Positions 7,106-53,467 of a DNA stretch of 64,000 nt are shown here, in pieces. The position numbers and the translations under genes were made by a program. Source of the stretch: Tribonema minus. Its lineage: Eukaryota > Sar > Xanthophyceae > Tribonematales > Tribonemataceae. The stretch lies in the NCBI GenBank assembly GCA_017506865.1, contig JAFCMP010000182.1, positions 1 to 64,000 on the forward strand. Direction: 5' to 3'. The stretch's first letter is position 1; each line of letters opens with the position of its first letter. The notes below the pieces were generated by a model that was not told the DNA's origin, did not search any database, and was given only the letters and a program-made list of their open reading frames with translations.

Positions 7106-8060
7106 CTGACTGCTGGATCTGTACCATGCAGCCTGGGGCTAACGCTGCATGTACTTACACAGGCACAACATTGTGTTGCCCTTGCACCTTGCAGGCTGGC
7201 TGCTGAATGCCTTCTTCACCATGCAGGGCTGATGCTGCATGAATTCCCGCATTCACAACAGTTTGTAGCAAGCGCACGACACGGCTGGCAGGAGCTCGTT
7301 CCAAACGCTGCGCTGGGCAACACAGCACAACTACTGGCCTGCTGCTCATTCTTTCGTCTACTGGTGCTCTACCTTGCACAGGCCAAGTGACTTGACGGGC
7401 TCTGTAGGACCAGAACAGCACATCAGGGCACTGCTTACAGGTGAGCTGGTTGATGATGGGTGTTGGCTTTCATATACACAGCGAGAGCAGCGTGCTACTA
7501 CCGTACATGACTGCGCCAAAGCATTCTGCACATGGCAGCAACGGCATTATGATCACAGGTCAATCTTATCAAGCGTGTCACCTGCTGTCAGTGCACATTG
7601 TGGCACCAGAGGACGCACACTGTCAGTAACATTTGCAGGGGTGTAGCTGGCAAAGGCCATGCTGCAAACTTCAACACAATCACGAAATTGGGGCACATGC
7701 ACACTGTAGGTCTAGTGCTGCACTTCCTGCAGATGTCATGCTGCAAACTTCAACACAGTCACGATAATTGGGGCACTTGCACACTCAGTCTGCAGGTCTA
7801 GTGCTGCACATCTTGCAAAGGCCATGCTGCAAACTTCAACACAGTCACAACAGTAGAGGCACTTGCACCTTGCAGCGCTAGTGCTGCACATCTTGCAAAG
7901 GCCATGCTGTAAATTTTAACACAACCACAAATATTGTGGCTTTGCACCTTGCAGGGCTAATGCTGCACATCTTGCGGGGTCATGCTGCAGACGTCAACAC
8001 AGTCGCAACTGATGTGGGACTTGCACCTTGAAGAGCGAAGTGCTGTACATTTTAAGGGCT
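7106..8060 (+). repeat. Left terminal inverted repeat (955 bp)
   Basis: This is the left arm of the long inverted repeat; its partner is 52506-53467. The outer half is unique-looking. The inner half (about 7640-8060) is built from diverged units of roughly 65-75 bp containing gctgcaaacttcaacacagt and a segment ending tagtgctgcac. The two arms differ by a few substitutions and small indels, for example near 7395 and 7680. The short frames in this arm recur antisense in the other arm and are not supported as genes. Confidence 0.92.
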
Positions 8061-8188
8061 ATGCTGCAAACTTCAACACAGTCACAACATGTTTTGCCAT
8101 TCATATCTTGCAGGTCTAGTGCTGGTATCATACAAGAGCTGCTGTTGACACTGCACATGCCATTGCATTTTCATCACTCTCAGGCACC

Positions 8189-11100
8189 ATGTTGAGCGAC
8201 ATCGTGGGCAAAAACCTGGCGGCTCGTGCCAGCAAGCACCTGTACGGGAGAGCCAAGACGCACTTCAGCACTCTTGTTCCCATCTGTAGTCCTGAGAATG
8301 TGGAGATTGGCATGAAAGAAGAGGCGAGGATAAAGGCGCTGGCGGTACCATCACGTCCGGTTGGCGAGACCTTCGACTTTGAAGAGTCCACAATTGAAAG
8401 CGAGGTGAGCTCAGTTCGGCAACACCTCATTTGCATTTGCATGCCATAGTGCATCTTCCCAACACACTCAGCATTGCACATTGAACTGGTAACACATCTG
8501 CAGTGCTAGAAGCTTGGGTCCAGCGTGCAACTACCACATAGCACTTGCTGGTATGTATACTACATCTGTACTCAAGTTTGTGCCTGACCATACACCTGTA
8601 TCGCTGCTGTACTGTGCAGGTCTCCTGGGTGAGAACAACCAAGTTTTCATCAAAGCTGATCCTGACAAACGTGGTCGACCCTGCCACGGGCAAGAACAAG
8701 GCCCTCTACTGCACCCCCCGTCCCACGCCATCATCACAGCAGGAGATCATCTTCAACTACACCCGCTGGGCAGACATCACCTCATACGGGCTAGTGCCTG
8801 GCAAGACCGTCCTCAACGACGGCGGCGTACTTGTTGACACCAACGGGCAACACTTTGTGGTGCGTTATGGAGATGGTGCTCGGCGCACCCTTTCTGCTCG
8901 GGCGGCTGTACCGCCGCCCCTGCCTCCACCTCTGGCGCCGGCCCCAGCACCGCTACCACCACCGCCACCAGCTCCTTCTGCGCCCAGATACAACCTCGTC
9001 ACTCAGATGCCGGACCCAACGGACTTCACCAACAACTTCTCCGGGTACAGGATCTTCTTTGCCAAAGATGATCGCTGGCACATCGGCGACATCAAGAGCT
9101 GCACCATCAGCACAGGGCGGACTCCTGCTTTCCAGGTTGAGGTGTCATTCAACATGAAGCAGATAGCCTCAACCACTACGATGGCTTTGCTGGAGGAGCC
9201 CGAAATGTTCAGCTTCAGAGTCCTGCACAGCCAGTACCTTGGCAGCGGCGAGCTCAAACACCGCGCCAGCGGCAATTGGTTCTTGAAGGAGGTACTGTCA
9301 AGGTGAGATCGTCACTTGAACCTTTGTGCACGCTTGAAGTTCCTGAGGCTGGGCCTGTCGAAAAAAAGTATTTCTCAGAGGCTGACCCTAAACGGGCCTG
9401 GTACGACGCTCGCTAGATTTTTGTAACCTGCAAATAAATAGGGCTGCTGATCAGAAGTGTAGGTGAGATTAGTGTAAGAGAGCTTCAAGCGTCCCCAGCA
9501 TTAGCAGAGGCCATACTAAGGCTTAGAGCAGAAAGTTGAACTTGTGTAGATATTGAAGTTCTTGAGGCTGGGCCTGTCGAGAAAAGGGTTCACAAAGTGT
9601 GAATAATTGTGGCTCATGATCGAAAGTGAGGGGGAGGTCAGGCTAAGAGAGGATCAATCTATCCCTACATCAGCAGTCACCATACTCAGCCTTACAGCAC
9701 ACACTTGAACTTGAGTTAAAACTTGAAGTTCCTGATGCTGGGCCTGTCGAGAAAAGGGTTTATAAAGTGTAAATAATTGTGGCTCATGATTGAAAGTGAG
9801 GGGGAAGTCAGGCTGAGAGAGGCTCAACCTATCCCTACATGAGCAGTCACCATACTTAGCCTTACAGCACACACTTGAACTTTGGCACACACTTGAAGTT
9901 CCAGAGGCTGGGCCTGTCGAAAAAAGTATTTCTCAGAGGCTGACCCTAAACGGGCCTGGTACGACGCTCGCTAGATTTTCGTAACCTGCAAATAAATAGG
10001 GCTGCTGATCAGAAGTGTAGGTGAGATCAGTGTGAGAGAGCTTCAAGCGTCCCCAGCATTAGCAGAGGCCATACTTAGGCTAGAGCACAAGGTTGAACTT
10101 GTGTAGAAATTGAAGTTCTTGAGGCTGGACCTGTCGAGAAAAGGGTTTATCAAGTGTAAATAATTGTGGCTCATGATCGAAAGTGAGGGGGAGGTCAGGC
10201 TGAGAGAGGTTCAATCTATCCCTACATCAGCAGTCACCATACTCAGCCTTGCAGCAGCACACACTTGAAAGTGTGAATAATTGTGGCTCATGATTGAAAG
10301 TGAGGGGGAAGTCAGGCTGAGAGAGGCTCAACCTATCCCTACATGAGCAGTCACCATACTTAGCCTTACAGCACCCACTTGAACTTTGGCACACACTTGA
10401 AGTTCCAGAGGCTGGGCCTGTCGAAAAAAGTATTTCTCAGAGGCTGACCCTAAACGGGCCTGGTACGACGCTCGCTAGATTTTCGTAACCTGCAAATAAA
10501 TAGGGCTGCTGATCAGAAGTGTAGGTGAGATCAGTGTGAGAGAGCTTCAAGCGTCCCCAGCATTAGCAGAGGCCATACTTAGGCTAGAGCACGAGGTTGA
10601 ACTTGTGTAGAAATTGAAGTTCTTGAGGCTGGACCTGTCGAGAAAAGGGTTCATCAAGTGTAAATAATTGTGGCTCATGATCGAAAGTGAGGGGGAGGTC
10701 AGGCTGAGAGAGGTTCAATCTATCCCTACATCAGCAGTCACCATACTCAACCTTGCAGCAGCACACACTTAAAAGTGTAAATAATTGTGGCTCATGATTG
10801 AAAGTGAGGGGGAGGTCAGGCTGAGAGAGGTTCAATCTACCCCTACATGAGCAGTCACCATACTTAGCCTTACAGCACACACTTGAACTTTGGCACACAC
10901 TTGAAGTTCCAGAGGCTGGGCCTGTCGAAAAAAGTATTTCTCAGAGGCTGACCCTAAACGGGCCTGGTACGACGCTCGCTAGATTTTCGTAACCTGCAAA
11001 TAAATAGGGCTGCTGATCAGAAGTGTAGGTGAGATTAGTGTAAGAGAGCTTCAAGCGTCCCCAGCATTAGCAGAGGCCATACTAAGGCTTAGAGCACAAA

Positions 11101-14100
11101 GTTGAAATTGTGTAGAAATTGAAGTTGTTGAGGCTGGACCTGTCGAGAAAAGGGTTCATCAAGTGTAAATCATTGTGGCTCATGATCGAAAGTGAGGGGG
11201 AGGTCAGGCTGAGAGAGGTTCAATCTATCCCTACATCAGCAGTCACCATACTCAACCTTGCAGCAGCACACACTCAAAAGTGTAAATAATTGTGGCTCAT
11301 GATCGAAAGTGAGGGGGAGGTCAGGCTGAGAGAGGTTCAATCTACCCCTACATGAGCAGTCACCATACTTAGCCTTACAGCACACACTTGAACTTTGGCA
11401 CACACTTGAAGTTCCAGAGGCTGGGCCTGTCGAAAAAAGTATTTCTCAGAGGCTGACCCTAAACGGGCCTGGTACGACGCTCGCTAGATTTTCGTAACCT
11501 GCAAATAAACAGGGCTGCTGATCAGAAGTGTAGGTGAGATTAGTGTAAGAGAGCTTCAAGCGTCCCCAGCATTAGCAGAGGCCATACTAAGGCTTAGAGC
11601 AGAAAGTTGAAATTGTGTAGAAATTGAAGTTCTTGAGGCTGGACCTGTCGAGAAAAGGGTTCATCAAGTGTAAATAATTGTGGCTCATGATCGAAAGTGA
11701 GGGGGAGGTCAGGCTGAGAGAGGTTCAATCTATCCCTACATCAGCAGTCACCATACTCAACCTTGCAGCAGCACACACTTAAAAGTGTAAATAATTGTGG
11801 CTCATGATCGAAAGTGAAGGGGAGGTCAGGCTGAGAGAGGTTCAATCTACCCCTACATGAGCAGTCACCATACTTAGCCTTACAGCACACACTTGAACTT
11901 TGGCACACACTTGAAGTTCCAGAGGCTGGGCCTGTCGAGAAAAGTATTTCTCAGAGGCTGACCTAAACGGGCCTGGTACGACGCTCGCTAGATTTTCGTA
12001 ACCTGCAAATAAATAGGGCTGCTGATCAGAAGTGTAGGTGAGATCAGTGTAAGAGAGCTTCAAGCGTCCCCAGCATAGCAGAGGCCATACTAAGGCTTAG
12101 AGCACAAAGTTGAACTTGTGTAGAAATTGAAGTTCTTGAGGCTGGACCTGTCGAGAAAAGGGTTCATCAAGTTTAAATAATTGTGGCTCATGATCGAAAG
12201 CGAGGGGGAGGTCAGGCTAAGTGAGGTTCAATCTATCCCTACATCAGCAGTCACCATACTCAGCCTTACAGCACACACTTGAACTTGAGTTAAAACTTGA
12301 AGTTCCTGATGCTGGGCCTGTCGAGAAAAGGGTTCATAACGTGTAATCAATTGTGGCTCATGATTAAAAGTGAGGGGGAAGTCAGGCTGAGAGAGGTTCA
12401 ATCTATCGCTACATCAGCAGTCACCATACTGAGCCTTACATCACACACTTGAACTTTGGCACACACTTGAAGTTCCAGAAGCTGGGCCTGTCGAGAAAAG
12501 GATTCATCAAGTGTAAATAATTGTGGCTCATGATCGAAAGTGTAGCTCAGAGAGGTTACAGCTTTCCCTACATGAGAGCTCGCCATACTAATTAATGACA
12601 CAAAGTTGAGCTTGTGCTTAAACTTGATGTCACCGAGGCTGGGCCTGTCGAGAAAAGTATTCATAAACTGCAAATTAATTAGGGCTCAAGATCGAAAGTG
12701 TAGGTGAGGTCAGGCTAAGCAAGGTATTTCCCTACATCAGCAGTTATCATACTAAACCTTACAGCACACACTTGACGTTATACACCACAACTGCAAAGTC
12801 TTGATACCTTCTCCATCAATTGTCACTTCCACATCTTGGCAGGCATGCACCTCCAGCCGCGCCAGCCGCCACGCCAGCCGCCCCTCCAGCCGCCCCTCCA
12901 GCCACCCCTCCAGCCGCGCCAGCCGCCACGCCAGCCGCCCCTCCAGCCATCCCTCCAGCCGCCTCCCCTGCGCATCCAGCCGTACCTTCAGGGATGGAAG
13001 AGTATGGGCTGTCGCACATTCTCTCCGAGGCTCGTCCCGGCCAGGGCGTCACCTCCCTTGAGGATGCTTGGCGCACATTCCTGCTGCAGCGCGCCGTCAT
13101 CATGTTCAACGGAGTCCTCATCTTCCACGACTACACGACGGATCCAAGCAGAGTCAAGAAAACTGGCAAGCGCATCGACACCATCAACTACAAGAAGAAT
13201 GGCATCATGAAGCTGAGGCGATACAACAGTCACTGTGGAGGGCAGAACGGGGAGGAGGTGCAGGAGGAGAGCGTGGGGGACGAGGAGGGTGGGGCAGACG
13301 AGGAGGATGACATAATGTGGAGGATGAGGGGGACAGCGAGGACAGCGACGATAGCGATGGTGAGGACGAGGGGGATGAGGAGAGCGGGGACGGTGCGGAG
13401 AGTGGGGGGGAGGAGGACTGGGCGGAGGCTGGGCGCGGTGACATCGGAGGCGGATACGTCAGCATAGCACCGGGCGCACGCACAGGCGGCATTATGCAGG
13501 CCATCGTGGACTCGGTGACCGCCCGTCAGCTGCTGCCCCCCTCCGGCCTCTGCCTCTACAGCAACGCGGTGCTCGACACGGAATACGGGCAACTAGCCTG
13601 GCCGTCGTTGTCATGTGATGTAGTCAACAGCTGCCGCCTCATGAGATCCCCAGAACTCACCATCGGCAACGCGTCAGACATCCCTGTCAACAACTGCATC
13701 AAGATCCTCAGCTTAGCGGCCGTCATCGGCCGCGCTCCGACGTGCACAGCCGGCTGCACGCTGCTCACGCCCGCGGAGGTTCAACTCGTGTTGAAGCGGT
13801 GCAAGGGCGCCGCTCGCGTCGACGACCCCGAACACGCTCGTACCCCCAAGCCTCCCATCACCCTCAAGGGCGCCCTGCCAGCGTCGCTGGCGCACCTCGT
13901 CTGGGACTACGATCTCAAGACTCGCCGTGAGGTGGTGGACAGCTGGACGCTGGTGAGAGCGGAGATAGCCTGCAAGGCGGCGGACGTCGGCGTACGGGAG
14001 GATCAGTATACCGCCACCAGCATCAACAACATCAACTGCGCCGCCCGCTACCTGTTTCACACCGCCAAGTACTTCAACACCACAGCAGAAGCGGGAGAGC

Positions 14101-16430
14101 AGCTGTCCAACTACTTCACTGTGCTGGACAAGCAGCAGGTGAGCTACCAACTGTTCTGGCGCAACCAGCTGGCGGCCGAGCACTCCGCCAACATCACCGG
14201 CGACATCAAGCTGCGCAAGGGGCGCCTCGTCGACACTGCCACCTGGGAGTACGTTAACGACCGCATGATCGGCGTGATGCTGGAGGGGACGTGGGGGCCG
14301 TTCCAGGGCGCCATCGGCAAGTGGCTCAAGGACAACGGCAAGTCCTGGGCGGATCTGGACGCCCTCGGCAACATCCTCGTCAACGGCAGCAAGAGCGACA
14401 ACTTCGGCACCAACAGGGGGAAGAAGCCCGATGCCTCCCATCTTACTGGTGTCGACTGGGTGCAGGAGCTGGCAGCGTACCTGCGGGAGACAGTCAAGGT
14501 CAACCTCTACGACTGCTGCAACTTGGAGCTGCTCACCCACCTTCTTGCCTACATGGAGAAGCCGGTGCGCCAGCAGGACGTCTGGCACAATCGAGCATCG
14601 CTCGTCTTCGCCAAGATCATCAACGGAGAGACACGCCTTTTCCTGGTGAGTGATGTAGCCATCAAACTGCCTGATAGGCTGGATGTGTTTGACTGCTGCG
14701 GGCGCCACTAAGTTTTGTTATGCATAATACATGCGATGAGGTCATGCATGCTCCGCGTGTTTGCTCTAGTATATGTACTTCAATAGTTCATAAGACTTGC
14801 ATCAAACTGCTTTCAAGTGTGCTAAGTAGGTACGGCATTTGGGGCAAAGTCCTCCACCACTGCATACTCCCATTTTCAACTCATATGTTGTTGTTGTAAC
14901 GTTTCAAGGTTGACACATCAGTGATGTGTACTGAGCACAAAGCGAAGTATGTTGCAATAGTTGTGGAATGTGCAACGCCATGGCTTAGCTGTCTGAGCTC
15001 GTGATGTACTGATGTCTGCAAGGCTTTGCATGGCGATGTGCACTGATGCTATGATTGTTGCATGTGTGCCTCTCCCAAACCATTGAATTATTGTGCAAAA
15101 CGCGTGCAACTGAATGAGGGCAAGAATGATCTGCGCGCTATGGCTTTGTTGTCTGAGCTCGTTGTGTACATATCGTGTCTGCAAAGCTTTGCGTCACGAC
15201 GTACACTGACAAATGCTGCTGTTTCTTATCGTGCGCCTCTCCCAGACCATCGATTCACCCACCAACAAGAAGTCCATGGGGAAGGGCAAAGGGAAGGCCG
15301 GCAACCTCAACGGCCCCCTCCCCACTTCCATTCCGCTGCCGAAGGAGCTGACCCGCATGTTCCTCGTCAGCCTCTTCGTGTGCCGTACCATGCGGCTGCA
15401 AGTCCAGCAGAGCGAGTCCACCAAAGCCGCTGACCGAGCAAAGCCTGTGCCCGACTTCGTCATTGGCCTCTGCGGCAACAGCAACAGGAGGATGGGGAAG
15501 AAGACCTTCACCAACATCCTCACCAAGCTGGGCATGTGTCACTTTGCGATACCCAGGTGGGGTCCCTACTCCATCCGCAATCAGTGGGTATCGGACATGT
15601 TTCTTCAGGCGCACAACATTGAGGTGACAAAAGGGATGGCTAAGGCGCAGGAGTACCTGGCGAACGCGATGCACGACATCCACAGCAGCTTAGATGCGGC
15701 AATCACCAACTACAACCAGACGCTCAACATACAGTACGCCAGCTGCCTGCGCCCGTCCAAGTACCAGCGGGTCAACGACGGGTATGGGACGGAGGCAACT
15801 GCTAGTGCCAGCGAGAGCGTCAGCAGCGGCGGCGGCTCCAGCGGTGGCGGCATCAGCAGCTGGGGGGCAGACACATACGGTGGGGGGGCGCACGCCATGC
15901 CTCTTGGCAAAGACATGTTGATCTTGCAGCAGCGGCAGACTGCTGCTATGGAGCAGATGGCAGCAGCCACAGCTGCGGCGCAGGCCACATCGGCTGCGAC
16001 GCAAGCCACACTGGCCGCTGTGCTGGCTCATATACAGGGTAAGCAAGATGCATCGTCGCCACCCCCCACTGCCGCAGCTGCAGCACCCTCCGTCAGCGCA
16101 GCACCCTTCAGCGCCGCATCACCTTTCACAAAGGCTGCAGAACCAATGATGCCCCCCCAGCAGTACATGCATGCGCCGCCCTTCCCACAGTACATGCAGA
16201 TGCCGCCCACCCAGCAGTACATGCAGATGATGCTACATCAGCAGTACATGCAGATGGCGCTCTGGCAGCAGGCTGTAATGCCCCAAGTGCACCAGCTTGC
16301 ACAAGCGCAGCCCATGCGCCGTACTATCAGCGTGTCCCCGCATGCTCTTCCACGCAGTGTTCAGAATGGCCCTCCCGGCTTCTACTACACAGGCCCTGCG
16401 CACACGGGCTACGACACCAACAGGCCTTGA
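8189..16430 (+). CDS. Four-exon gene of about 1,295 codons, function unknown
   Basis: Exons are 8189-8404, 8620-9302, 12843-14645 and 15246-16430. Donors (GAG|GTGAGC, AAG|GTGAGA, CTG|GTGAGT) and acceptors (TGCAG, TGGCAG, CCCAG) are canonical, and the phases agree across all three introns (0, 2, 0). Exon 2 has a Pro/Ala-rich linker (about residues 160-190). Exon 3 opens with an Ala/Pro repeat and has a long acidic Asp/Glu/Ser stretch. Exon 4 has a Gly/Ser segment, an Ala-rich segment and a C-terminal Gln/Met/Pro repeat (QQYMQM motif). A one-base frame change is needed near 13308-13317 inside the acidic GA-rich tract, either a sequencing error or a real lesion. The gene sits just inside the left inverted repeat, where a mobility protein would be expected, but I see no DDE, tyrosine-recombinase or helicase signature. 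The start ATG follows an acceptor-like CTCTCAG, so a 5' untranslated exon is possible. Confidence 0.7.
9345..12790 (+). repeat. Tandem array of about 505-560-bp units inside an intron
   Basis: Six higher-order units begin with gaggctgggcctgtcg followed by a poly-A/tatttctcag segment, at about 9345, 9904, 10407, 10911, 11417 and 11922. Each contains two or three related subunits, including cctgtcgagaaaagggtt and a ggctcatgat block. The core TCAGAGGCTGACCCTAAA, followed by tacgacgctcgctagatttt, occurs once per unit. The array fills the second intron of the four-exon gene. It is the same family as the array at 26.1-28.2 kb, in the opposite orientation. The short minus-strand frames here are by-products of the repeat. 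Confidence 0.9.
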
Positions 16431-21838: not shown

Positions 21839-22034
21839 GCGGTACCCGGTGGAAGCGCGAGGCAGAGATGTGTGGAAGTGCCGCACGGCAAAAGACCCAA
21901 CCTTGTAATTGTCTTGTCTGCACTTTTTATTGTCACTTCGCGGAAGGAGTGGCGAAGGCGCTGGTGCTTGTGTCGTTGCACATTGGCCACAAACAACTGC
22001 ACCGACTTTAAGTATCAAACCTTTGTGTCCAACG

Positions 22035-28200: not shown

Positions 28201-28412
28201 CTAGTAACGTACGGAGTTTTTTTACTCTCTGCTGTTACTGCGCACAGCCGTATAAGTAAATGACCAGCAGCAAAGATTAGCATTTGCTCTTGCAAGCATG
28301 TCTGCCCAGTACTGGTGGTGCAGGTCGATAATGAATGCAATGAGCACCTGTGACGGCGACTGTGATCACATAAAAGAAGCGTGTATTGGAACTGTGTGTA
28401 GACCCCCAGGCC

Positions 28413-31791: not shown

Positions 31792-31794
31792 ATG
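31786..31794 (+). promoter_or_regulatory. TATAAATG at the lipase start
   Basis: The lipase ATG is embedded in GGTATAAATGTGG. The string TAAATG at a start codon is the known late-promoter signature of poxviruses and some other large DNA viruses. Here it is a single instance and may be chance. Confidence 0.3.
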
Positions 31795-40583: not shown

Positions 40584-40599
40584 CTGTTGTCTGTACTGC

Positions 40600-42297: not shown

Positions 42298-42327
42298 GGT
42301 GCAAGTGTATTGCTTGAAACAAAGCAC

Positions 42328-42338
42328 ACAATATATTT
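42328..42338 (-). promoter_or_regulatory. AAATATATTGT promoter-like element of the coiled-coil gene
   Basis: An exact 11-base match to the element upstream of the + strand gene at 43152. It lies 30 nt upstream of the ATG at 42297. The shared sequence and similar spacing suggest a promoter used by genes of this block. Confidence 0.5.
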
Positions 42339-42356
42339 GCGGTATTCCACGCTACG

Positions 42357-43031
42357 TCAAAATTTTGGGGTCTCACGGCACTCCATAAGCTTGGAAAAGG
42401 CGTCATCCAGCTTCTCAGAGTTTTGAGACACGAGCATTGCGTCCCCAGCATTCAGCGCATGTTCATTACCCATGCTGCTGTAGGCATCAGCGATGCTAGT
42501 GCCCAAGGCTTTCTTATCACTCAAGGAACTGAATGGCTGAGGCTCGGGTGGCATTCCATTTGCACTCGGCCCGCTGGACGGCCTAGTGGCTGGCCCAGCA
42601 GCATCGCTACCGCTCTGACGAACTAACGGTGGTTCAGCAATCTTGGACTGAAGCCAATCGAATGCTGCGTCCCCGCAAAACCCGTCGCCATTCCCGTCCA
42701 GGACTGTACTACTAGTAGGGACTCCCGGCAACCAAGGCGGACTCTGGCAGACATCAATGTCCACCACATGCACATTCAGTCCGTAATGCTTGACTGCCAT
42801 TGCAAATTCAGCACTATATGGACATCTTGCAAGCGAGAGGTACGCCTCACCTTCACGTGCTGGGGGAGGCGGTAGCTTAGTGTCAGGCTGAGGATGAGCA
42901 CTGATCATGTCATTTCTGCCGTCACTGTACTTTGATGGTCCACGTATCAGCATTGTAGGACGAGATGTACATGGCACCATCTTTCGATTCTGCAAGCCTG
43001 AATGCCCGACAGCAGCAGCCTGAGGCCACAT
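42357..43031 (-). CDS. Thioredoxin/glutaredoxin-fold-like protein, 224 aa
   Basis: The middle (about residues 60-130) contains YLSLARCPYSAEFAMAV followed by VHVVDID and W(L)PGVPTSSTVLDGNG. That is a one-Cys CPYS active-site-like motif, then the cis-Pro region (GVPT) and a glycine turn, as in small thioredoxin-fold proteins of large algal DNA viruses and in glutaredoxins. The first 55 and last 90 residues are low-complexity or unrecognised. ATG at 43031 has TATATA about 10 nt upstream; later ATGs are possible. Catalytic activity is uncertain because only the first active-site Cys is present. Confidence 0.6.
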   Translation of the reverse strand: MWPQAAAVGHSGLQNRKMVPCTSRPTMLIRGPSKYSDGRNDMISAHPQPDTKLPPPPAREGEAYLSLARCPYSAEFAMAVKHYGLNVHVVDIDVCQSPPWLPGVPTSSTVLDGNGDGFCGDAAFDWLQSKIAEPPLVRQSGSDAAGPATRPSSGPSANGMPPEPQPFSSLSDKKALGTSIADAYSSMGNEHALNAGDAMLVSQNSEKLDDAFSKLMECRETPKF

Positions 43032-43113
43032 GAGTCTGTATATACGATCATATTACACAAAAAATGCTCAACGTGTACAACGTGTTGATGACGCCATGCG
43101 TACAAAACCGTGA

Positions 43114-43124
43114 AAATATATTGT
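43114..43124 (+). promoter_or_regulatory. AAATATATTGT promoter-like element
   Basis: It is identical to the element before the gene starting at 42297 and ends 27 nt upstream of the ATG at 43152. The GTG-initiated longer version of the downstream frame would put this element inside coding sequence, which supports the ATG at 43152. Confidence 0.5.
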
Positions 43125-43151
43125 TGTTGTGATTTATCAAAGGGCCTGGCA

Positions 43152-44543
43152 ATGAGTGATGTATATGACATGCTAGATAAAGCCAAGGCACCAGTACCAA
43201 CCCTGAAATCGAGCGCAAAGATCATTGATGTCACACCAGCCACTGCTTCACAAAGTTCATCTGACTCTTCTACACCACCGCTCAAGACACGCACGACGCA
43301 CACCAGGCGTGTCATGTCACCTTTGCCAACCCCCCCGCCCTTGGAACGTAAAGCCTACAGGAGCTCATCCACAAGACCCTCTCGGACTGCAGGTCGAGTT
43401 CGAAAGCACAGGCACAAGGTGCCATCGCCACCACCACCCCTGGACACGCTAAACTATTCAGACTCTGATTGGAGTTCAACAACATCGGCGTCTGCGTTCT
43501 CTATAAGTTCACATGCAAAAGTTAAGGTAGCAAGTGCGCGGTCAAAGACGTCAGACGGAAGTGCTGCCACAAGCGCTGCCACGAGCGCTGGAGCTGCAAT
43601 CGCATTAGCAGCAGCATCCACCATTGCTGCACCTGCATCGAAGAATGGTGTGAAACTCATCAAGTCCATTGTTATCACAGGACTTGTGATTGGTACAGTG
43701 TTTGTGATCTTACGACTTTGGAAGCGGATCAAAGCATTACAAAGTGAGCTGGATGGTATGAGGGCTGAACTGGATGTGACCAGTCACCTGACAGAGGAGG
43801 ATGTGGCAACCATTGCACGCGTGAAGCTTGAAGAGATTCTGGAACAACCTGCCACATCGTACCTGCCGCGCACACAAGCACGCATGAGACAGGTACCAGT
43901 CGAAATGGCGCCTTCACAGATGATAGAGCCGCAAGTGTCACTGTCAGCGCCATCAGCAGGTCCTGATGTTGGCACGGCTATTTCACCACCACCGTCAATG
44001 CCCCCCACGCGTGTCACCTTCCTGGACACGACCCATCCTGCCAGCGCGACTGCTTTAAGCCCCCAATTGCTGAATGCAGCATCCAAGTGCGTACCTCATG
44101 TCCGCACACCTGCGATACGAAACATCACGCAGCTTGACACGATTGAAGAGACTTTAGATGAAGGTATCGACGCACCAGTGAATGGTGGCTCCTTCAGACC
44201 ACCGACGCCAGTCGAAGTTGCAGAGGAAACGTTGCTGACAAGGCAACAAGATCAGCAAAGCAATGAGCAGCTCAGCCTGTCGGCAACTGCAATAGAACAG
44301 CCCCGTCCGTCCACCAACACAATAGTATCAACAGAGAGGTTGGAGCAATGTGCAATGATGCAAGTTTCATCCACGAGTGCAGTTGAGGTTGAGACCCCTT
44401 CACAACCGGCAGCAGCAGAGCAGGAACAGCAGAGCGTGAGTTCAACAGCGGTAATGGATGTGAGTACATCAGCAGATGCAGCAACAGCGCCAGTTGCGAA
44501 AAAGCGTGTAAAGGCAAAAAAAGGGACTACAACTGTTCTGTAA
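43152..44543 (+). CDS. Single-pass membrane protein with coiled coil, 463 aa
   Basis: The N-terminal 150 residues are Ser/Thr/Pro-rich and basic. They are followed by an Ala-rich stretch and a strong transmembrane helix (SIVITGLVIGTVFVILRLW, about residues 177-195). A short heptad segment (IKALQSELDGMRAELDVT) comes next. The remaining 260 residues are a low-complexity Ser/Thr/Gln/Pro/Glu tail with a basic end (KKRVKAKKG). No family is recognised; a virion membrane protein is an inference from architecture and neighbours. It is convergent with the next gene (14-bp gap). Confidence 0.75.
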   Translation: MSDVYDMLDKAKAPVPTLKSSAKIIDVTPATASQSSSDSSTPPLKTRTTHTRRVMSPLPTPPPLERKAYRSSSTRPSRTAGRVRKHRHKVPSPPPPLDTLNYSDSDWSSTTSASAFSISSHAKVKVASARSKTSDGSAATSAATSAGAAIALAAASTIAAPASKNGVKLIKSIVITGLVIGTVFVILRLWKRIKALQSELDGMRAELDVTSHLTEEDVATIARVKLEEILEQPATSYLPRTQARMRQVPVEMAPSQMIEPQVSLSAPSAGPDVGTAISPPPSMPPTRVTFLDTTHPASATALSPQLLNAASKCVPHVRTPAIRNITQLDTIEETLDEGIDAPVNGGSFRPPTPVEVAEETLLTRQQDQQSNEQLSLSATAIEQPRPSTNTIVSTERLEQCAMMQVSSTSAVEVETPSQPAAAEQEQQSVSSTAVMDVSTSADAATAPVAKKRVKAKKGTTTVL

Positions 44544-44557
44544 CATCCACAACCATA

Positions 44558-45469
44558 TTACCAGTGTGTGACCTCCAAAAATGTGTCCTCTATGACAATC
44601 TTGCCCAGATGCCTGTTGTTCAGGCACTGCCACAATGCAAACCACAACGTACAATAGTCTAAGGGATTGCTTTCTGAGAAGAAGTCGCCCCGCGAGCCCG
44701 ACAGTGTCTTGATGAAGTCTGTTATATCTTGACCATCCATGCTCGCGTAAAGTACTTCAAGTTGTCGAACATCCATGCCCCTCGCTGTCTGAGTCATGGC
44801 GTGTTCAGGGGGGAAAACCTGTTGCGGCACATCACTACTGTTTGTCAGCGTATAAACAGTGCAGTACTTTTGTGCGCCCACCCTCCGCGTCAGGTTTGCG
44901 TGTCCTCCGTAGTCCACCATCAGCAGATAAGCTGGAGCATTATTTGTAATGCTTTGAAATGTTGCATGATCAAACACGACTTCACCTTCATTGCCACTTT
45001 CAGCCCACATTTGCTGGATTATACCTGTAACATTGTGCACCATGGGCTCCTCTCCTGCGAGCTGCGACATGGAGTGCAAGTGTGGATCACTTTCCTCTGT
45101 CTCTTGCGCAGGTGGGTCAGCGGACCACTGTGCATCCCAGCCCAGCGGACGCTGGGAGCCTAGTTGCAGTGCACGGATAGCCCAATCATCCCTTATTTCA
45201 CAGCACAATGCTCTGTACACAAACACTCGCTCCTTGATGGTGGACGCATGCGTTGCAAAGTGCAACTTCTTATCGAATTTGAAGATGGCATCGAGTATCA
45301 ACCGGTGAAAGCTGCCGTACTTTTCCCTATTTTTGGGGTAATCTTTGTAGGTTCGGAGCCACCATATCTTTGCTTGCTCCGGGAGCAAGTTGTACTTTAC
45401 AAGTTCAAACAATATGACAATGTGCAATAGTACAGTGTACAACACCATGCAAGAAAGCAGCAGCCACAT
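44558..45469 (-). CDS. Membrane-anchored protein of unknown function, about 303 aa
   Basis: ATG at 45469 (MWLLLSCMVLYTVLLHIVILFELV) opens directly with a transmembrane segment. The in-frame ATG at 45526 would leave only 30 bp to the divergent gene, so the shorter form is preferred. The body is globular. The C-terminal segment DFIKTLSGSRGDFF, followed 40 residues later by KIVIEDTFLEVTHW, resembles from memory the ending of some hypothetical proteins of large algal DNA viruses (xGPxGDF, then a D-x-x-G/E-x-x-x-W/F end). This is unverified. It stops with TAA at 44558. Confidence 0.7.
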   Translation of the reverse strand: MWLLLSCMVLYTVLLHIVILFELVKYNLLPEQAKIWWLRTYKDYPKNREKYGSFHRLILDAIFKFDKKLHFATHASTIKERVFVYRALCCEIRDDWAIRALQLGSQRPLGWDAQWSADPPAQETEESDPHLHSMSQLAGEEPMVHNVTGIIQQMWAESGNEGEVVFDHATFQSITNNAPAYLLMVDYGGHANLTRRVGAQKYCTVYTLTNSSDVPQQVFPPEHAMTQTARGMDVRQLEVLYASMDGQDITDFIKTLSGSRGDFFSESNPLDYCTLWFALWQCLNNRHLGKIVIEDTFLEVTHW

Positions 45470-45556
45470 GTTCGAGCACCGTTGATGTTGAAACACATTT
45501 AGATGAAGACGTCTTGTCCACAGCATAAATTATTGCGCATATGAGTACAAGGTGTC

Positions 45557-48471
45557 ATGACAAGTACACGTGAGGTTTCAGATCGAGACCTACTTTCGTT
45601 TGCAGCACTGGTAGCAGCACTGATCTGGCTGACGGCGCGCCCTGTCACACTCCCATGTGTTAATTGCGACACCGGTGGCATGTTCTACAAGTGCATGGAC
45701 GGCAGAGGCGCAGGTTCAGTCACATGTGAAGCGTACAGAGCTGGTAATGCAGCCATTGCTAGTGCGCGCAAAGGTGCGCTCACTGCAGGTGAGTATGCGA
45801 GGGAGCTGACAGTGTTCACAACAAAGCTGCCAGAGTACCCGAGCAAGTTTGCTGCGCTCATCATAAGCAAGCTCATGACTGCTGCTGCTGAAGTGTACGC
45901 ACGGATGATTTCAGTCTCAGCTTACCTGAAAGCCAAGGTGGCAGAGATCGCCAAAGCAACGCTAACACCCATGTACGACATGTGGGCCGCATTCCACGAT
46001 GCAGCCATCAAACCGCTGATAGCAGGAATGATCAAGTACGTCTTGCAACCTGTGACGAAAGCCATGGACGCAATCGTCGCCTTTGTACATCTGGTGATGA
46101 AAGAGGTGGACGTTGTACTCGACGGAGGGGGCGAGATCGTCAGGAAAGCGTATGACGCAGTGTACCAGGCATCGGGAACGCTCTCTAAAACCATAGAAAG
46201 CATGTTGGTAAAAATTGCAGATCTGATTGAAAAGTTGGTGGCAGGTGTGCGAGGAGCCGTCAACACGGCGCTGGACACTGTCGTCAGTGGAGTCGAGACC
46301 TCAGTTAATCAAATAGGGAAGGGTGTTGAGAAGGCTTTGGATGGTGTTGAGAGCGGTATCAATGCTGCAGTGTCTGGAACTGTTGGCAGTGCGACTGCTG
46401 CTGTCAACACATCGACTAAGGCACTTGATGTAGTTGTATCAAGCACTGGAGACAAGCTCAACACAGCATTCACAAAGGTAACAGGTGGTGTGCAAGACAG
46501 CGTCAATGCAGTGGCAGGTGGGGTTCAGGACGCTGTCAACAATGTCGGCTCTAATGTTGTAGGAGGCATCGGCAATGTAATTGATGAAACGGAGCAAGTT
46601 GTTAACAGCTTGAGTGATGGACTCGCCAGCTCCATAAATGCAATGATCGGGGTCATCAACAAGAATGTCAGCAGCAAGATCGAGGCGACTGTAAACAGCT
46701 CTGCTACCGTCATCGAAAAAGCAGTTGACGCAGGTCTCACGCCGATACGATCAATCGCCAAGTCGATCAATAAGATTTCATCATTCGAACTCAAGTTGGG
46801 GGCGCTGGGGTCAATTTATCCATTCATGTTCATTCCATATGTAAGGGAGCCGAATGGCGTGGACCTGCCAACTGTAGACATTCCCGACATTCCGACCATG
46901 ACTATTCCGCATGTGAATATTCCTTCTGTCACATATAAGGTGCCTTCGACCGCGACAAAGAAGCCGCAAGGTGATGCACGGGCTAGGCTGCTGGGCGCCA
47001 TTGAAAGGGCTCAGAAGAACTGGAAAATTGCATCGGACTCGCAAACAGCATTGGGTGATGCGCCATTGCCTGCAGCAGCACCTTCTACTCGCAAGAGCTA
47101 TGCCTTCATGCGCAACAACCAACCCACTCACCCGCACGATTCAGAAGAAGATTTCACCTGGGCGACCACTCTGCTCAGAGAGTCCATTCCATCCACTGAA
47201 CGCAGACCCCTGGGAATTTCAAAGTCAATTTTCAACAAGATCGGAGACGGGATCAAGAAAGCAGCAAATGATGTCGCTGACTTTGCTGAAGATACAGCGC
47301 AAAAAGCGATTGAAGAAGCGAGGGATCTCGCACTAAAGGCAGCCAAGCCGTTGACTGACGCCATCAATAAACAAGCTGTGAAAGACAAGGCGGAGGCAGA
47401 CAAGCGAGCTGCTCTGGACAGTGCGGCAGCAGTAGCCCGTGAGAATGCCGCAAAGAAGTCGCTGGCAAACAATGCGAAAACACAAGCCACTCTCAAGAAA
47501 CAGTTGGCTGATGCAAAAGCGGCATCCGCTGCTGCACTGAAGGCACGCGCCTCTGCCAAAGCTGCAGTTTCAAGTGCAGACAAGGTCATTGATGGTGTCA
47601 CATTACCGCGAGTCAGCCTGACTGCTCCGACTGTCAACTTGCAGCCGCCAGGATTGAAGGTGGACTGGCAAGTGAAACCTTTAGACATCAACACTCCCAC
47701 ACTACAGGTGAAGATGAAGAGACCTCAGGTCAACTTTGAAGTAGGCGACATCAGCGCTGATATACCTCACGTGCCTAACCTGCTCGATGGAGTTGAAACG
47801 GCTATTGGCAAGCTTGGACAACTCCTGTCAGACTTCCTTAAGCCGGTCTGGGAAGCGTTGGGGGTGTTGTTTGCATATATGAACACTGTTGTTGCATCGG
47901 TGCTTTACTTTGTCAGGGAGGAGATCAGCTGGGCAAAAATTAGGGATGGTGTATCCACCATCTTCACAAGTTCTGCAGTGACAGTCAAGGATAAGATGCG
48001 TTGGCTGTGGCATGAAATTGCCGTACCATTAATGAAAGTGGTTGTGATGATAAAGACAAGGTCATTGAGCTCACCAAGGTCTTCATCGAGCTGGTGAAGG
48101 GATTGCTGGCTATTAGTAACTTGAAACAGAAAATCTACTCCCTGGCCGATACACTATGGGTTAAGATAAGGCCGGTGCTCCGTGAGACTGCTGTGATTAC
48201 TGCTGGTGTTGGGACCTTTACATTCGCGTCCGTGGTGGACCGGCTGATCCCGCTGCCCATGTCGCTGACTACAAAAGTGTACGTCACACTACTGTTCACA
48301 GTTCTGGCTCTATAAGGCGCGCAATCGACATTTGTGGTGGACCAGGTTGTCGGTCTTCTCAGGATGTGTCTGGTGCCGGTCATGTACGCTGACGAATGGT
48401 TTGATCAGTTTGCAAAATCAAGCACGTCCTGGATTGCTCGCACAGCCAAGGCAGTGGGAGGCAGCAGCTAG
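45557..48471 (+). pseudogene. Large membrane/structural-like protein, about 970 codons, with frameshift and in-frame TAA
   Basis: ATG at 45557 starts an 846-codon frame. The protein continues in another frame from about 48046 (a 2-base gain or 1-base loss in gtggttgtgatgat). It is then interrupted by TAA at 48313 and continues in that frame to TAG at 48471. An N-terminal membrane segment is followed by CVNCDTGGMFYKC. A long amphipathic helical repeat region follows (VxxGVxxAVN type, about residues 220-400). Next come Pro-spaced beta-like repeats (VDLPTVDIPDIPTMTIPHVNIP), a Lys/Ala/Glu coiled coil (about 560-670), a second Pro-spaced set and hydrophobic C-terminal segments. Such Pro-spaced hydrophobic repeats occur in big structural proteins of algal viruses (from memory). 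The present copy would be truncated. Confidence 0.7.
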
Positions 48472-48725: not shown

Positions 48726-48889
48726 CTATTGTGTGTCTTAATATCAACTCAGTTTGTCTACACTATGAAGCCAGCATACTGCGCACAAGGGAGACCATGG
48801 TGAGTTTGAGTAATTATGTAGGGCGAGCCTAACACAGCATCAGATTGTATCAACCTTCTGATCACACTTGGTCGACAACTCCTGAGGCT

Positions 48890-51050
48890 GCTGGGTCATG
48901 TAGGGAAAACTTCGGTCCCAAAACCTGAAATATGTCTCGCACTGATCTCAGCCTGCTGTTTCGATGTGTCTGCAACAATTAAATGCAGTTTACGAAAATC
49001 TAGCGAGCGTCGTACTGACCCCACTTAGGGTAAGCCTCTGAAACAAACTTTTCTGGCAGACTCAAAGTCTCAAATTTTAAGCATCGGCGTTAGGTGCTAG
49101 GCGGTTGGTGCAGGCAGGCACCTCGAGCCGCAGACGCCTGCATCATTGAGCAGGCCATCTCGCTCACTGAATGCATCGATCAATCACCCTACTGCGCCTA
49201 GCAATTAGGCGCGCGTTTCGTAGGCATTGAGCCCCCTTAAAAGTGAACCCAGGTGTATCAGCTGCAGTGCCACAGCTGAAGGTTTGATCTAACACCCTAC
49301 TGCGCCTAGCAATCCATGTAAGCTATACAGTGAGGGTGAACATGGTGAGAACATATGTTATGGTGGGGAGCAAGTTCTAAATTAAAATCAGACTGCACTA
49401 CACTGCTGATCACCTGGTCAAGCACTCCTGAGCCTACTTCAGTCTGACACTGGATGGGCACATTGTGCTTGGACATTAATATAAGTGCTGGGTCATGTAG
49501 GGAAAACTTCGGTCCCAAAACCTGAAATATCTCTCAGACTGATCTCAGCCTGCTGTTTCGATGTGTCTGCAACAATTAAATGCAGTTTACGAAAATCTAG
49601 CGAGCGTCGTACGTATGGACTTGTATTTATAAAGGCCCAAGGGAGGCCGGGTTGCCTATGCAATCGAAAAGCTTGCGTCAACGCAGCAGCCTAGTCTGAG
49701 CGTCGTACTGACCCCATTTAGGGTCAGCCTCTGAAAAAAACTTTCCTGGCAGACTCGCAGTCTCAAATTTCAAGCATGGCGTTAGGCGCTAGGCGGCTGG
49801 TGCAGGCAGGCACCTCGAGCCGCAGACGCCTGCATAATTGAGCAGCCCATCTCGCTCACTGAACGCATCGATCAATCACCCTACTGCGCCAAGCAATTAG
49901 GCGCACGTTTCGTAGGCATTGAGCCCCCTTAAGAGTGAATTAAGGTGTATCAGCTGCAGTGCCACAGCTGAAGCTTTGATCTAACACCCTACTGCGCCTA
50001 GCAATCCATGTAAGCTATACAGTGAGGGTGAACATGGTGAGAACATATGTTATGGTGGGGAGCAAGTTCTAAATTAAAATCAGACTGCGCTACACTGCTG
50101 ATCACCTGGTCAAGCACTCCTGAGCCTGCTTCAGTCTGACACTGGATGGGCACATTGTGCTTGGACATTAATATAAGTGCTGGGTCATGTAGGGAAAACT
50201 TGAGCCCCAAAACCTGAAATGTATCTCGCACTGATCTCAGCCTGCTGTTTCGATGTGTCTGCAACAATTACATGCAGTTTACGAAAATCTAGCGAGCGTT
50301 GTACTGACCCCATTTAGGGTCAGCCTCTGAAAAAAACTTTCCTGGCAGACTCGCAGTCTCAAATTTCAAGCATGGCGTTAGGCGCTAGGCGGCTGGTGCA
50401 GGCAGGCACCTCGAGCCGCAGACGCCTGCATAATTGAGCAGCCCATCTCGCTCACTGAACGCATCGATCAATCACCCTACTGCGCCAAGCAATTAGGCGC
50501 ACGTTTCGTAGGCATTGAGCCCCCTTAAAAGTGAATTAAGGTGTATCAGCTGCAGTGCCACAGCTGAAGCTTTGATCTAACACCCTACTGCGCCTAGCAA
50601 TCCATGTAAGCTATACAGTGAGGTTGAACACGGTGAGAACATATGGTGGGGAGCAAGTTCTAAATCAAAATCAGACTGCGCTACACTGCTGATCACCTGG
50701 TCAAGCACTCCTGAGCCTGCTTCAGTCTGACACTGGATGGGCACATTGTGCTTGGACATTAATATAAGTGCTGGGTCATGTAGGGAAAACTTGAGCCCCA
50801 TAACCTGAAATGTATCTCGCACTGATCTCAGCCTGCTGTTTCGATGTGTCTGCAACAATTACATGCAGTTTACGAAAATCTAGCGAGCGTCGTACTGACC
50901 CCATTTAGGGTCAGCCTCTGAAAAAAACTTTTCTGGCAGACTCGCAGTCTCAAATTTCAAGCATGGCGTTAGGCGCTAGGCGGTTGGTGCAGGCAGGCAC
51001 CACGAGCCGCAAACGCCTGCATAATTGAACAGGCCATCTCGCTCACTGAT
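48890..51050 (+). repeat. Tandem array of about 595-bp units with the shared core
   Basis: Units start with gctgggtcatgtagggaaaa at 48890, 49487, 50179 and 50770. Each holds ctagcgagcgtcgtactgac and the core TTTAGGGTCAGCCTCTGA (diverged in the first), then ggcgttaggcgctaggcgg and the caccctactgcgcctagc element. The second unit is longer because of a 96-bp insertion (49613-49708) flanked by the 11-bp direct repeat GAGCGTCGTAC. The core has the same orientation as at 26-30 kb and the opposite orientation to that at 9-12 kb. Conserved minus-strand frames within the units are repeat-borne and lack gene evidence. Confidence 0.9.
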
Positions 51051-51935
51051 TGCATCGATCAATCACCCTACTGCGCCTAGCAGTTAGGCGCGCGTTTCGT
51101 AGGCATTGAGCCCCCTTAAAAGTGAACCCAGGTATATCAGCTGCAGTGCCACAGCTGAAGCTTTGATCCAACACCCTACTGCGCCTAGCAGTTGGGCGCG
51201 CATTTCGTAGGCATTGAGCCCCCTGACAAGTGCATCGAGGTGTATCAGCTGCAGAGACACAGCTGAAGCTTTGATCCAACACCCTACTGCGCCTGGCAAT
51301 CAGGCGCGCGCTTCGCATGCATTGAGCCTCCTTGAATGTGAACCAAGGTGCATCAGCTGCAGTGACGCCGCTGAAGCTTTGATCCAACACCCCACTGCGC
51401 CTAGCAATTAAGCGCGCGCTTCGTATGCGTTGAGCCCCCAGGATTTTGAACCAACACACTGGCAGACAGAGTACATTTTGCGACGCTGTGACGCTGCTGA
51501 AGCTTTGATCCAATATACCCTACTGCGCCTAGCAATTAGGCGCGCGTTTCGTATGCATTGAGCCCCCTTTGAATGTGAACCAAGGTATATCAGCTGCTGC
51601 AGTGACTCTGCTGAAACTTTGATCAAACACCCTACTGCGCCTACCTATTAGGCGCGCGTTTCGTATAAAGTCAGCCCTTTGGACTTCCAACCAAGATAGA
51701 CAGAGTGCATAATGCAAATGCAGTGACGCCGCTGAAGGTTGAGCAAAACACCCTACTGCGCCTAGCAATTAGGCGCGCCTAACGTGTGACCTAAGCCGCC
51801 TTGCTGTACAGCCGAGGTATACTATCTGCCTACTAAGCCTGCAGTGACGCTGCTGAATGTGCATCAAACACCGTACTGCGCCTACCTATTAGGCGCACCT
51901 TTCGTGTGCACGAAGCCCCCATGACTTTGAACCAG
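51050..51935 (+). repeat. Array of about 110-120-bp units with an inverted-repeat element
   Basis: About eight diverged units follow the larger array. Each has GCGCCTAGCAATTAGGCGC or a variant, a 7-bp stem with a 5-base loop, followed by gtttcgtaggcattgagccc and a cagctgcagtgacgc / ctgaagctttgatccaacac segment. This is the monomer that also sits inside each 595-bp unit. The interval 51936-52505 after it holds no recognised gene or repeat. Confidence 0.85.
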
Positions 51936-52505
51936 GTGACGCACCTGAGCCATATCGGACGCCCCGGTGCCTATGGTTTAGGCAGGCTTTCCCTGACTCT
52001 CTTGCCCCCCCTGTCCACCATGAAGAAAATTTAGCAGCCACAGCTTCTCTAGTCTCAGTTCCGATTGCATAGCACGTATCGCCTAGGCGAGGCAGATGAA
52101 GGCCTGGCTCAGTTTCCTAGATTTTCGGCGTGTCTCACTTCTTGCTCGTCTATCGTGACACCTGCACCCAACACGAGTTGACACTCGCTCAACCCCCGTG
52201 ATAGCCCCTTTTAGTCTGGAACAAAAAAGATATGTTCTGATGTTATTTGCTTCCACGCAACCGCAAAGTAGGTGGCACAACAGAGTGGCACAGAGCTGTC
52301 ATGGAGGAGAGTGTGGTGGTGTGCCAACCACAGAGGGTGAAAGTGTGTGTGAGACCCAGTCTCAACCTTGACTTGAAACAGCCGGAAATGCCCACTGCCT
52401 GGTGCCGTGGGAGGTGGACCGGAGCGCCCTCCCCAAGTGCAATATCACCCTGATATGCAAGCGTGGCTAAACAGGTAGAAGCAGAAGAAGCTGTGCCATG
52501 TTGAA

Positions 52506-53467
52506 AGCCCTTAAAATGTACAGCACTTCGCTCTTCAAGGTGCAAGTCCCACATCAGTTGCGACTGTGTTGACGTCTGCAGCATGACCCCGCAAGATGTG
52601 CAGCATTAGCCCTGCAAGGTGCAAAGCCACAATATTTGTGGTTGTGTTAAAATTTACAGCATGGCCTTTGCAAGATGTGCAGCACTAGCGCTGCAAGGTG
52701 CAAGTGCCTCTACTGTTGTGACTGTGTTGAAGTTTGCAGCATGGCCTTTGCAAGATGTGCAGCACTAGACCTGCAGACTGAGTGTGCAAGTGCCCCAATT
52801 ATCGTGACTGTGTTGAAGTTTGCAGCATGACATCTGCAGGAAGTGCAGCACTAGACCTACAGTGTGCATGTGCCCCAATTATTGTGATTGTGTTGAAGTT
52901 TGCAGCATGGCCTTTGCCAGCTACACCCCTGCAAATGTTACTGACAGTGTGCGTCCTCTGGTGCCACAATGTGCACTGACAGCAGGTGACACGCTTGATA
53001 AGACTGACCTGTGATCATAATGCCGTTGCTGCCATGTGCAGAATGCTTTGGCGCAGTCATGTACGGTACTAGCACGCTGCTCTCGCTGTGTATATGAAAG
53101 CCAACACCCATCATCAACCAGCTCACCTGTAAGCAGTGCCCTGATGTGCTGTTCTGGTCCTGCAGAGCCCGTCATTGACAAGTCACTTGGCCTGTGCAAG
53201 GTAGAGCACCAGTAGACGAAAGAATGAGCAGCAGGCCAGTAGTTGTGCTGTGTTGCCCAGCGCAGCGTTTGGAACGAGCTCCTGCCAGCCGTGTCGTGCG
53301 CTTGCTACAAACTGTTGTGAATGCGGGAATTCATGCAGCATCAGCCCTGCATGGTGAAGAAGGCATTCAGCAGCCAGCCTGCAAGGTGCAAGGGCAACAC
53401 AATGTTGTGCCTGTGTAAGTACATGCAGCGTTAGCCCCAGGCTGCATGGTACAGATCCAGCAGTCAG
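52506..53467 (-). repeat. Right terminal inverted repeat (962 bp)
   Basis: It is the reverse complement of 7106-8060 with a few substitutions and small indels. The inner boundary is at agcccttaaaatgtacagca (52506) and the outer boundary is at cagtcag (53461-53467). The sequence outside (ccctcctgcaaagtg) is unrelated to the left flank. Confidence 0.92.

What the first reader, a model, noticed from the sequence alone, without database searches (positions are those of the whole stretch)
7106..53467. A 46.4-kb unit bounded by near-identical 0.96-kb inverted repeats
The two arms (7106-8060, 52506-53467) match in reverse complement almost base for base and stop abruptly. They enclose intron-containing genes, a compact virus-like block and large repeat arrays. 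Such size and arm length are far above ordinary DNA transposons and resemble giant transposons or integrated virus genomes. No known transposase or integrase was recognised, so the mobility mechanism could be new.
Basis: partly seen in the sequence, partly recalled or inferred. Interest (0 to 1): 0.9.

Follow-up and report, generated by a model that had tools for sequence, protein, structure and literature searches.

The report
Shrunken giant-virus insertion in an alga
The 46-kb unit between two mirror-image repeats looks like the left end of a much larger giant-virus genome that was inserted into the DNA of a yellow-green alga and later shortened, and it shows where such insertions may begin.

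Summary
The inverted repeat is real (951 of 962 arm columns identical), but its left edge is not an element end: 7105 is the 3' end of a Ty3/Gypsy LTR. Contig C39 carries the matching 5' LTR (398/398), the same CTGA duplication and the missing 1.13 kb of repeat (1124/1130). The true repeat is about 2.1 kb, the element about 48.6 kb, ending in TCAACTTTGACAAAA plus GATC on both sides. The host is almost certainly Tribonema minus. The interior is colinear with C90, C179 and C33. C90 and C179 continue past window 52311 into an open 669-aa ORF and carry PolB and NCLDV capsid genes, 440-449 kb from this end to the capsid gene. Best reading: a deletion derivative of an endogenous, xanthovirus-like giant virus. 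A gene at 8.5-16.4 kb, found inward of 16 of 39 other loci of the outer repeat, resembles a tyrosine recombinase; no profile or fold confirms this. Only two loci seen (this one, C126) have the repeat at both ends, so the origin of the right repeat is unsettled.

The parts
1..7105 (+). 3' part of a Ty3/Gypsy retrotransposon (pol ORF 569-4618: RT, RNase H, integrase; 3' LTR 6708-7105, 398 bp, TG...CA) inserted into the left inverted repeat; not part of the element
   Evidence: RVT_1, RNase H, rve; 58 match rows for 5239-7105; 5' LTR on C39:421998-422395, 398/398 identical, CTGA on both sides
7106..8060 (+). left inverted-repeat arm, inner part; the outer 1130 bp are on contig C39:420868-421997
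8542..9303 (+). 5' exon region of the candidate recombinase gene (inferred)
   Evidence: its relative on C519 overlaps the first 57 residues of gene model P0007 (JKP88DRAFT_278984), whose later part matches 12997 onward
9313..12775 (.). tandem array (units about 117/170 bp), inferred to lie in an intron of the recombinase gene; inverted relative of 26123-28215
   Evidence: intron inferred
12997..14708 (+). middle exon of the candidate tyrosine recombinase (PVRxQ box); the match to P0007 changes frame between 13311 and 13422
15210..16427 (+). 3' exon of the candidate tyrosine recombinase (KK, YSxR, IH...Y); 80 match rows in the genome, about 65 distinct spots
20900..21926 (-). coding-like segment shared with C109, C33, C112, C507, C64 and C532
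26123..28215 (.). second tandem array, inverted relative to 9313-12775
30682..32094 (-). Kelch-repeat protein
31792..32520 (+). class 3 lipase-like ORF (one of 46 ORFs gave the Lipase_3 hit; assigned to this one by its GHSAGA motif), overlapping the Kelch gene on the other strand
32568..33419 (-). SAM-dependent methyltransferase
34409..35815 (-). HNH-like protein (type read by eye, no Pfam hit), relatives P0001-P0005; C-terminal part missing, next to a dispersed 434-bp repeat at 34078-34511
36015..43031 (-). compact block of five ORFs (710, 311, 499, 575, 224 aa) without Pfam family, conserved on C179 and C90, partly on C33 and C293
   Evidence: 97.9% of 36015-48097 is ORF
43110..44543 (+). 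477-aa ORF of the compact block
44558..45526 (-). 322-aa protein; relatives on C179, C90, C293, C514, C35, C274, C112, C223; 46% identical metagenome protein P0006, which has a sub-threshold DUF5772 match (E 0.096)
45557..48097 (+). 846-aa coiled-coil-like ORF
48889..52311 (.). repeat-rich end of the region colinear with C90 and C179; homology stops at 52311, where those copies continue into an open 669-aa ORF
52312..52505 (+). 194-bp dispersed repeat at the deletion junction
52506..54593 (-). right inverted repeat, true extent about 2.09 kb; terminus TCAACTTTGACAAAA + GATC (54590-54593)

Best explanation
The unit is a shortened relic of an endogenous giant virus (Nucleocytoviricota, xanthovirus-like) in Tribonema minus. 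The parent element begins with a conserved left end: terminus TCAACTTTGACAAAA abutting a 4-bp GRYC core, a 2.1-kb repeat, then a divergent tyrosine-recombinase-like gene, then about 35 kb of cargo. It continues for more than 400 kb to PolB and the major capsid gene. Here everything beyond window 52311 has been replaced by a 194-bp repeat and an inverted copy of the left end, leaving a 48.6-kb unit with inverted-repeat ends. A Ty3/Gypsy element later landed in the left repeat. Shown: repeat extent, shared terminus, Gypsy insertion, colinearity with C90, C179 and C33, PolB and MCP on C90 and C179, and the association of end and gene. Inferred: that end, PolB and MCP on those contigs are one virus; that the gene is a tyrosine recombinase that joins element ends to GRYC targets, probably through a circle; that the right repeat arose by internal deletion or terminal inverted duplication.
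For: Terminus: in 9 ends laid side by side and on C179 the repeat stops at the same word, with small variants; the 19-letter word has 14 exact places, and 33 at up to 2 mismatches against 5 for the reversed control. Core: GATC at both ends here; GGCC at both ends of C126. Recombinase-like exon inward, on the expected strand, within 30 kb of 16 of 39 F loci (about 0.006 expected each under uniform placement; 1 of 39 has it nearby only in another position; one of the 39, C39, is this element's own left end). With 65 of the 80 exon rows: 8 of 14 exact termini, 1 of 2 with one mismatch, 2 of 17 with two. Colinear order on C90 from F (654.5k) to window 52311 (702.3k), 47.8 kb. PolB at C179:209.9k and C90:821.2k, MCP at C179:470.0k and C90:1095.0k. 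The 322-aa protein has relatives with open frames at 96, 94, 59, 33 and 27% identity.
Against: No hallmark virus gene in the window itself. No second terminus within 2 mismatches on C179, and none at all on C90, so inverted-repeat ends are not shown for the full-length virus. C179 and C90 could share spacing because they are duplicated chromosome segments: the 669-aa ORF is 660 of 669 identical between them, although the HNH-like proteins P0001 and P0002 are only 71% identical. Some relatives of the 322-aa protein carry stops (C293, C35, C274). The recombinase assignment has no support from Pfam, PDB sequence or fold searches, and the C516 copy lacks the H and has C for Y before SxR. The two flanks do not look like one target cut in two.
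Confidence: 0.66

Rival explanations
1. A self-contained giant transposon family with inverted-repeat ends (48-59 kb), which carries the recombinase-like gene and cargo; the links to PolB and MCP on C179 and C90 come from insertion of such units next to or into viral DNA.
For: Two units have the repeats in inverted orientation: 48.6 kb (C39/C182) and 58.7 kb (C126:15813-74528, repeats 90-95% alike in the longest pieces). C126 has the recombinase-like exon and no PolB or MCP match. No second terminus on C179 or C90.
Against: Window homology to C90 and C179 ends at a dispersed repeat inside an ORF that is open there, so the window copy is the derived form. PolB and MCP lie at similar distances from the block on both contigs.
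Confidence: 0.2
2. A chance arrangement: two truncated copies of a one-ended repeat (F-arm-interior) in opposite orientation, brought together by rearrangement at the 194-bp repeat, so that the arms are only their overlap.
For: In six other copies fetched the arm occurs between F and left interior, at one end only. The 194-bp repeat sits at the junction.
Against: The two repeats here are each other's closest copies (F pair 1124 of 1130; next best 95-96%). C126 shows a second inverted pair.
Confidence: 0.2
3. A misassembly or a polinton-like element.
For: The left contig edge falls inside a Gypsy repeat and the right junction inside repeats. Compact ORFs with inverted repeats resemble polintons.
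Against: C39 explains the left edge. No polinton integrase, PolB, capsid or ATPase profile hit in the 118 of 203 interior ORFs scanned (85 nested shorter ones left out).
Confidence: 0.06

Closest known systems
Xanthoviruses (Nucleocytoviricota in xanthophyte genomes) and phaeovirus EVEs of Ectocarpus (PMC13236599, PMC12993054; passages seen)
   Same: Same host group; PolB and MCP on the contigs with the longer relatives; a recombinase candidate near the end; a short core at the junction
   Different: Phaeovirus EVEs join at CC (or GC/CG) dinucleotides, have left and right ends that differ from each other, and carry a recognised tyrosine recombinase. Here the core is GRYC, one end type stands at both ends of the derivative, and the candidate gene is not matched by PF00589
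Punuiviruses of Chlamydomonas (only as described in PMC13236599 and PMC12993054)
   Same: Endogenous giant viruses with large terminal inverted repeats and target-site duplications
   Different: They are thought to use a retroviral-like DDE integrase; no rve hit in the interior ORFs scanned
Polintons and polinton-like viruses (14-40 kb; search listing only)
   Same: Inverted repeats, compact virus-like genes in protist genomes
   Different: Larger; no polinton hallmark profile hit
Sola2 DNA transposons (GRHC preference recalled; the search did not return it)
   Same: A GRHC target preference would include GATC, GGTC and GGCC
   Different: No transposase profile hit; far larger than I recall for Sola2

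Membership tests
Endogenous Nucleocytoviricota (xanthovirus) | NCLDV major capsid protein in the element | tested here: inconclusive
   None in the window; PF04451 hits at C179:469997 and C90:1094952, contigs whose left part is colinear with the window. The 14 control genomes gave none
Endogenous Nucleocytoviricota (xanthovirus) | Family B DNA polymerase in the element | tested here: inconclusive
   None in the window; C179:209901-211333 and C90:821161-822596 (controls 5 of 14)
Endogenous Nucleocytoviricota (xanthovirus) | Phylogenetic placement of PolB/MCP beside phaeoviruses | not tested
   No tree made here; a paper roots phaeovirus trees with Tribonema minus PolB and MCP (PMC13236599, passage)
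Tyrosine recombinase | Conserved catalytic R, K, HxxR, H/W and Y | tested here: inconclusive
   K, R, H and Y are among 30 invariant columns of six 3'-exon rows and an R in PVRxQ is kept by eye; but YxxR instead of HxxR, a wider R-to-H gap, and that Y and the H lost in the C516 copy. The motif reading is mine
Tyrosine recombinase | PF00589 profile match | tested here: not met
   0 matches in the genome at E <= 0.001, 13 candidates scored, controls 14 of 14; no integrase family in 9 members
Tyrosine recombinase | Catalytic domain fold | tested here: inconclusive
   mean pLDDT 41 and 44; no useful Foldseek match for the second model
TIR transposon / integrated element | Same precise terminus in many copies | tested here: met
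TIR transposon / integrated element | Target-site duplication and empty site | tested here: inconclusive
   GATC/GATC here and GGCC/GGCC at C126; palindromic, so not decisive. On C126 the repeats stop matching about ten bases before GGCC. No empty site sought by search
Polinton / polinton-like virus | rve integrase, PolB, capsid, packaging ATPase | tested here: not met
   No profile hit in 118 of 203 interior ORFs; capsid fold not tested

The most novel reading that the evidence does not exclude
A giant-virus lineage of yellow-green algae integrates through a new, intron-containing family of tyrosine-recombinase-like enzymes. They act on inverted-repeat ends around a palindromic GRYC core, and the virus sheds 50-60-kb derivatives with the same end at both sides that persist as transposon-like units and may be moved in trans.
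Probability: 0.3. Interest if true: 0.82.

Novelty: new variant of a known kind. Interest (0 to 1): 0.6.

Why it matters
[quoted passage not shown] This locus gives one candidate end, its core and a candidate recombinase family (80 match rows, about 65 spots). Whether these viruses integrate and are inherited like phaeoviruses, and by which enzyme, becomes directly testable. It also shows how a retrotransposon can create a false element edge in an assembly.

Tried and rejected
Reading 7106 and 53467 as element ends: rejected. A staggered-break inversion of 46 kb: considered, dropped once C39 and C126 were seen. Solo-LTR reading of 52312-52505: dropped because the fetched copies run to 52505. 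A second end at C516:367628: no repeat similarity behind the word, taken as chance. Viral-contig scans with four queries found no relatives. PHROGs hits to tape-measure families were taken as coiled-coil similarity. Rfam: no match. Structures of the recombinase candidate: low confidence. The Gypsy query ended at 7105, so reaching 7105 alone does not show that copies stop there; the proof rests on C39. Rows dropped before counts: 13 of the 55 non-window rows lie in loci already listed and were left out, the other 42 merged into 39 loci, 15 of the 80 exon rows (repeats of listed spots) were left out. On checking I lowered the best explanation from 0.68 to 0.66 because the 669-aa ORF is 660 of 669 identical between C179 and C90, which makes a duplicated segment somewhat likelier.
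Full report
OBSERVATION. The inverted repeat is there. The repeat finder gives 7106-8060 against 52506-53467 in three near-perfect pieces, and an alignment gives 951 of 962 columns identical. The window is the start of contig C182 (107,583 bp) of a 158-Mb genome in 554 contigs. The host is almost certainly Tribonema minus: the best relatives of two window proteins are T. minus records, and the contig lengths given for P0001 and P0002 (1,195,936 and 1,361,928) equal those of C179 and C90.

THE LEFT EDGE IS A RETROTRANSPOSON. The sequence before 7106 is a Ty3/Gypsy element whose 3' end, 5239-7105, has 58 match rows in the genome. A search with the outer flank of the right arm (53468-54620) found a 99% copy on C39 that starts exactly at 53468. 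On C39 this copy is followed by CTGA and a 398-bp LTR identical in 398 of 398 columns to window 6708-7105. Beyond that LTR C39 does not continue into the arm; I take what follows as Gypsy internal sequence. In the window the LTR is followed by CTGA and the arm. C39 and C182 are therefore read as two pieces of one locus split at the Gypsy element. The left repeat is 1130 bp (C39:420868-421997; 1124 of 1130 identical to the right side) plus the arm.

THE TRUE END. In 9 ends laid side by side (window, C39, C109, C64, C507, C178, two on C516, C532) similarity stops at the same place, TCAACTTTGACAAAA followed by GATC, GGTC or GGCC, with small variants; C179 has it too. A pattern search gives 33 places at up to 2 mismatches, 14 of them exact, against 5 for the reversed pattern. 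In the window the word is 54575-54593. The element is thus about 48.6 kb without the Gypsy insertion. A second locus, C126, has repeats in inverted orientation 58.7 kb apart, 90-95% alike in the longest pieces, with GGCC at both ends. There the repeats stop matching about ten bases before GGCC, and C126 is not among the 33 places, so its core is less certain. In the six other copies fetched with F, arm and interior the end occurs once.

THE GENE AT THE END. Exons at about 8.5-9.3, 13.0-14.7 and 15.2-16.4 kb are read as one gene: gene model P0007 joins parts like the first and second, and joining the third is my inference. The 9.3-12.8 kb tandem array would then sit in an intron. The 3' exon has 80 match rows in the genome, about 65 spots. 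Of 39 F loci outside the window, 16 have it inward on the expected strand within 30 kb, mostly 6.5-15 kb away, against about 0.006 expected per locus; one has it nearby only in another position. Of 14 exact termini, 8 do; of 2 with one mismatch, 1; of 17 with two, 2. Six 3'-exon rows (29-92% identical to the first) share 30 invariant columns, among them KK, the R of YSxR, and an H ten residues before a Y; an R in a PVRxQ box is kept in the middle exon by eye. I read this as a divergent tyrosine recombinase. Against it: no Pfam, PDB-sequence or fold support, no PF00589 match in the genome, YxxR rather than HxxR, and loss of that Y and of the H in the C516 copy. In the window's own copy the match to P0007 changes frame in the middle exon.

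THE CARGO. Pfam names a Kelch protein, a methyltransferase and a class 3 lipase. The HNH-like protein at 34409-35815 lacks the C-terminal part of its relatives and ends beside a dispersed 434-bp repeat. From 36015 to 48097, 97.9% of the DNA is ORF, with no family assigned above its cut-off. The 322-aa protein 44561-45526 has relatives with open frames at 96, 94, 59, 33 and 27% identity, and others with stops on C293, C35 and C274. One 46% relative, P0006, lies on a 14.5-kb metagenome contig and gives a sub-threshold DUF5772 match (E 0.096).

THE PARENT. The interior is colinear, with insertions, with C90 (F 654.5k, recombinase 665.6k, Kelch to methyltransferase 681.4-684.9k, block 687.8-702.3k), with C179 (20.8k, 32.8k, 53.5-70.7k, 72.1-87.9k) and, reversed, with C33 up to part of the block. 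On C90 and C179 it continues past window 52311 into an open 669-aa ORF, 660 of 669 identical between the two. Further on lie PolB (C179:209.9k, C90:821.2k) and the NCLDV capsid gene (C179:470.0k, C90:1095.0k), both on the plus strand: 449 and 440 kb from F to the capsid gene. PF04451 has 10 match rows and PF00136 26 in the genome; the other places were not examined. In the window 52311 abuts a 194-bp dispersed repeat and then the right inverted repeat. I conclude that the window holds a deletion derivative of an endogenous giant virus. That C179 and C90 each hold one continuous virus is inferred from order, strand and spacing; the DNA between was not read, and a shared duplicated segment is not excluded.

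MECHANISM. Most likely the recombinase-like enzyme joins element ends at short GRYC sites, perhaps from a circle in which two ends meet around the palindrome. This is inferred. The right repeat could come from a linear viral genome with inverted ends that lost its middle, from a terminal inverted duplication, or from joining to another copy. That the two repeats are each other's closest copies favours the first two.

KNOWN CONTEXT. Passages of PMC13236599 and PMC12993054 say that xanthovirus genes are known from xanthophytes, that phaeovirus-like tyrosine recombinases occur in Tribonema and others, that boundaries and attachment sites remain to be defined, and that punuiviruses have large inverted repeats with target duplications. 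In the listings I saw no paper describing these ends; most subscription papers are not held.

Noticed in passing
34078-34511: A 434-bp dispersed repeat (two places on C109, one on C516, matching in both orientations) lies at the end of the HNH-like gene, which is truncated there.
   Followed up: partly
9313-12775, 26123-28215, 48889-51190: Large tandem arrays of related units, in both orientations, also on many other contigs.
   Followed up: partly
window 28308-29546 and C182:73029-74299: A coding-like stretch of the unit recurs at 81% identity outside it on the same contig.
   Followed up: no
C223 (own genome): Two PolB places and two capsid places with weak relatives of the 322-aa protein, possibly two diverged insertions.
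   Followed up: no
C39 below 420868, C109 above 42181, window 54594-55897: The C39 and C109 ends abut sequence that matches the window's Gypsy pol (35 and 34%) and reads outward; the window's right end abuts an outward ORF that matches only C507 and that I read by eye as Gypsy-like. Possible target preference.
   Followed up: partly
own genome, PF00589 search: The profile finds no match at E <= 0.001 although a paper reports phaeovirus-like tyrosine recombinases in Tribonema.
   Followed up: no
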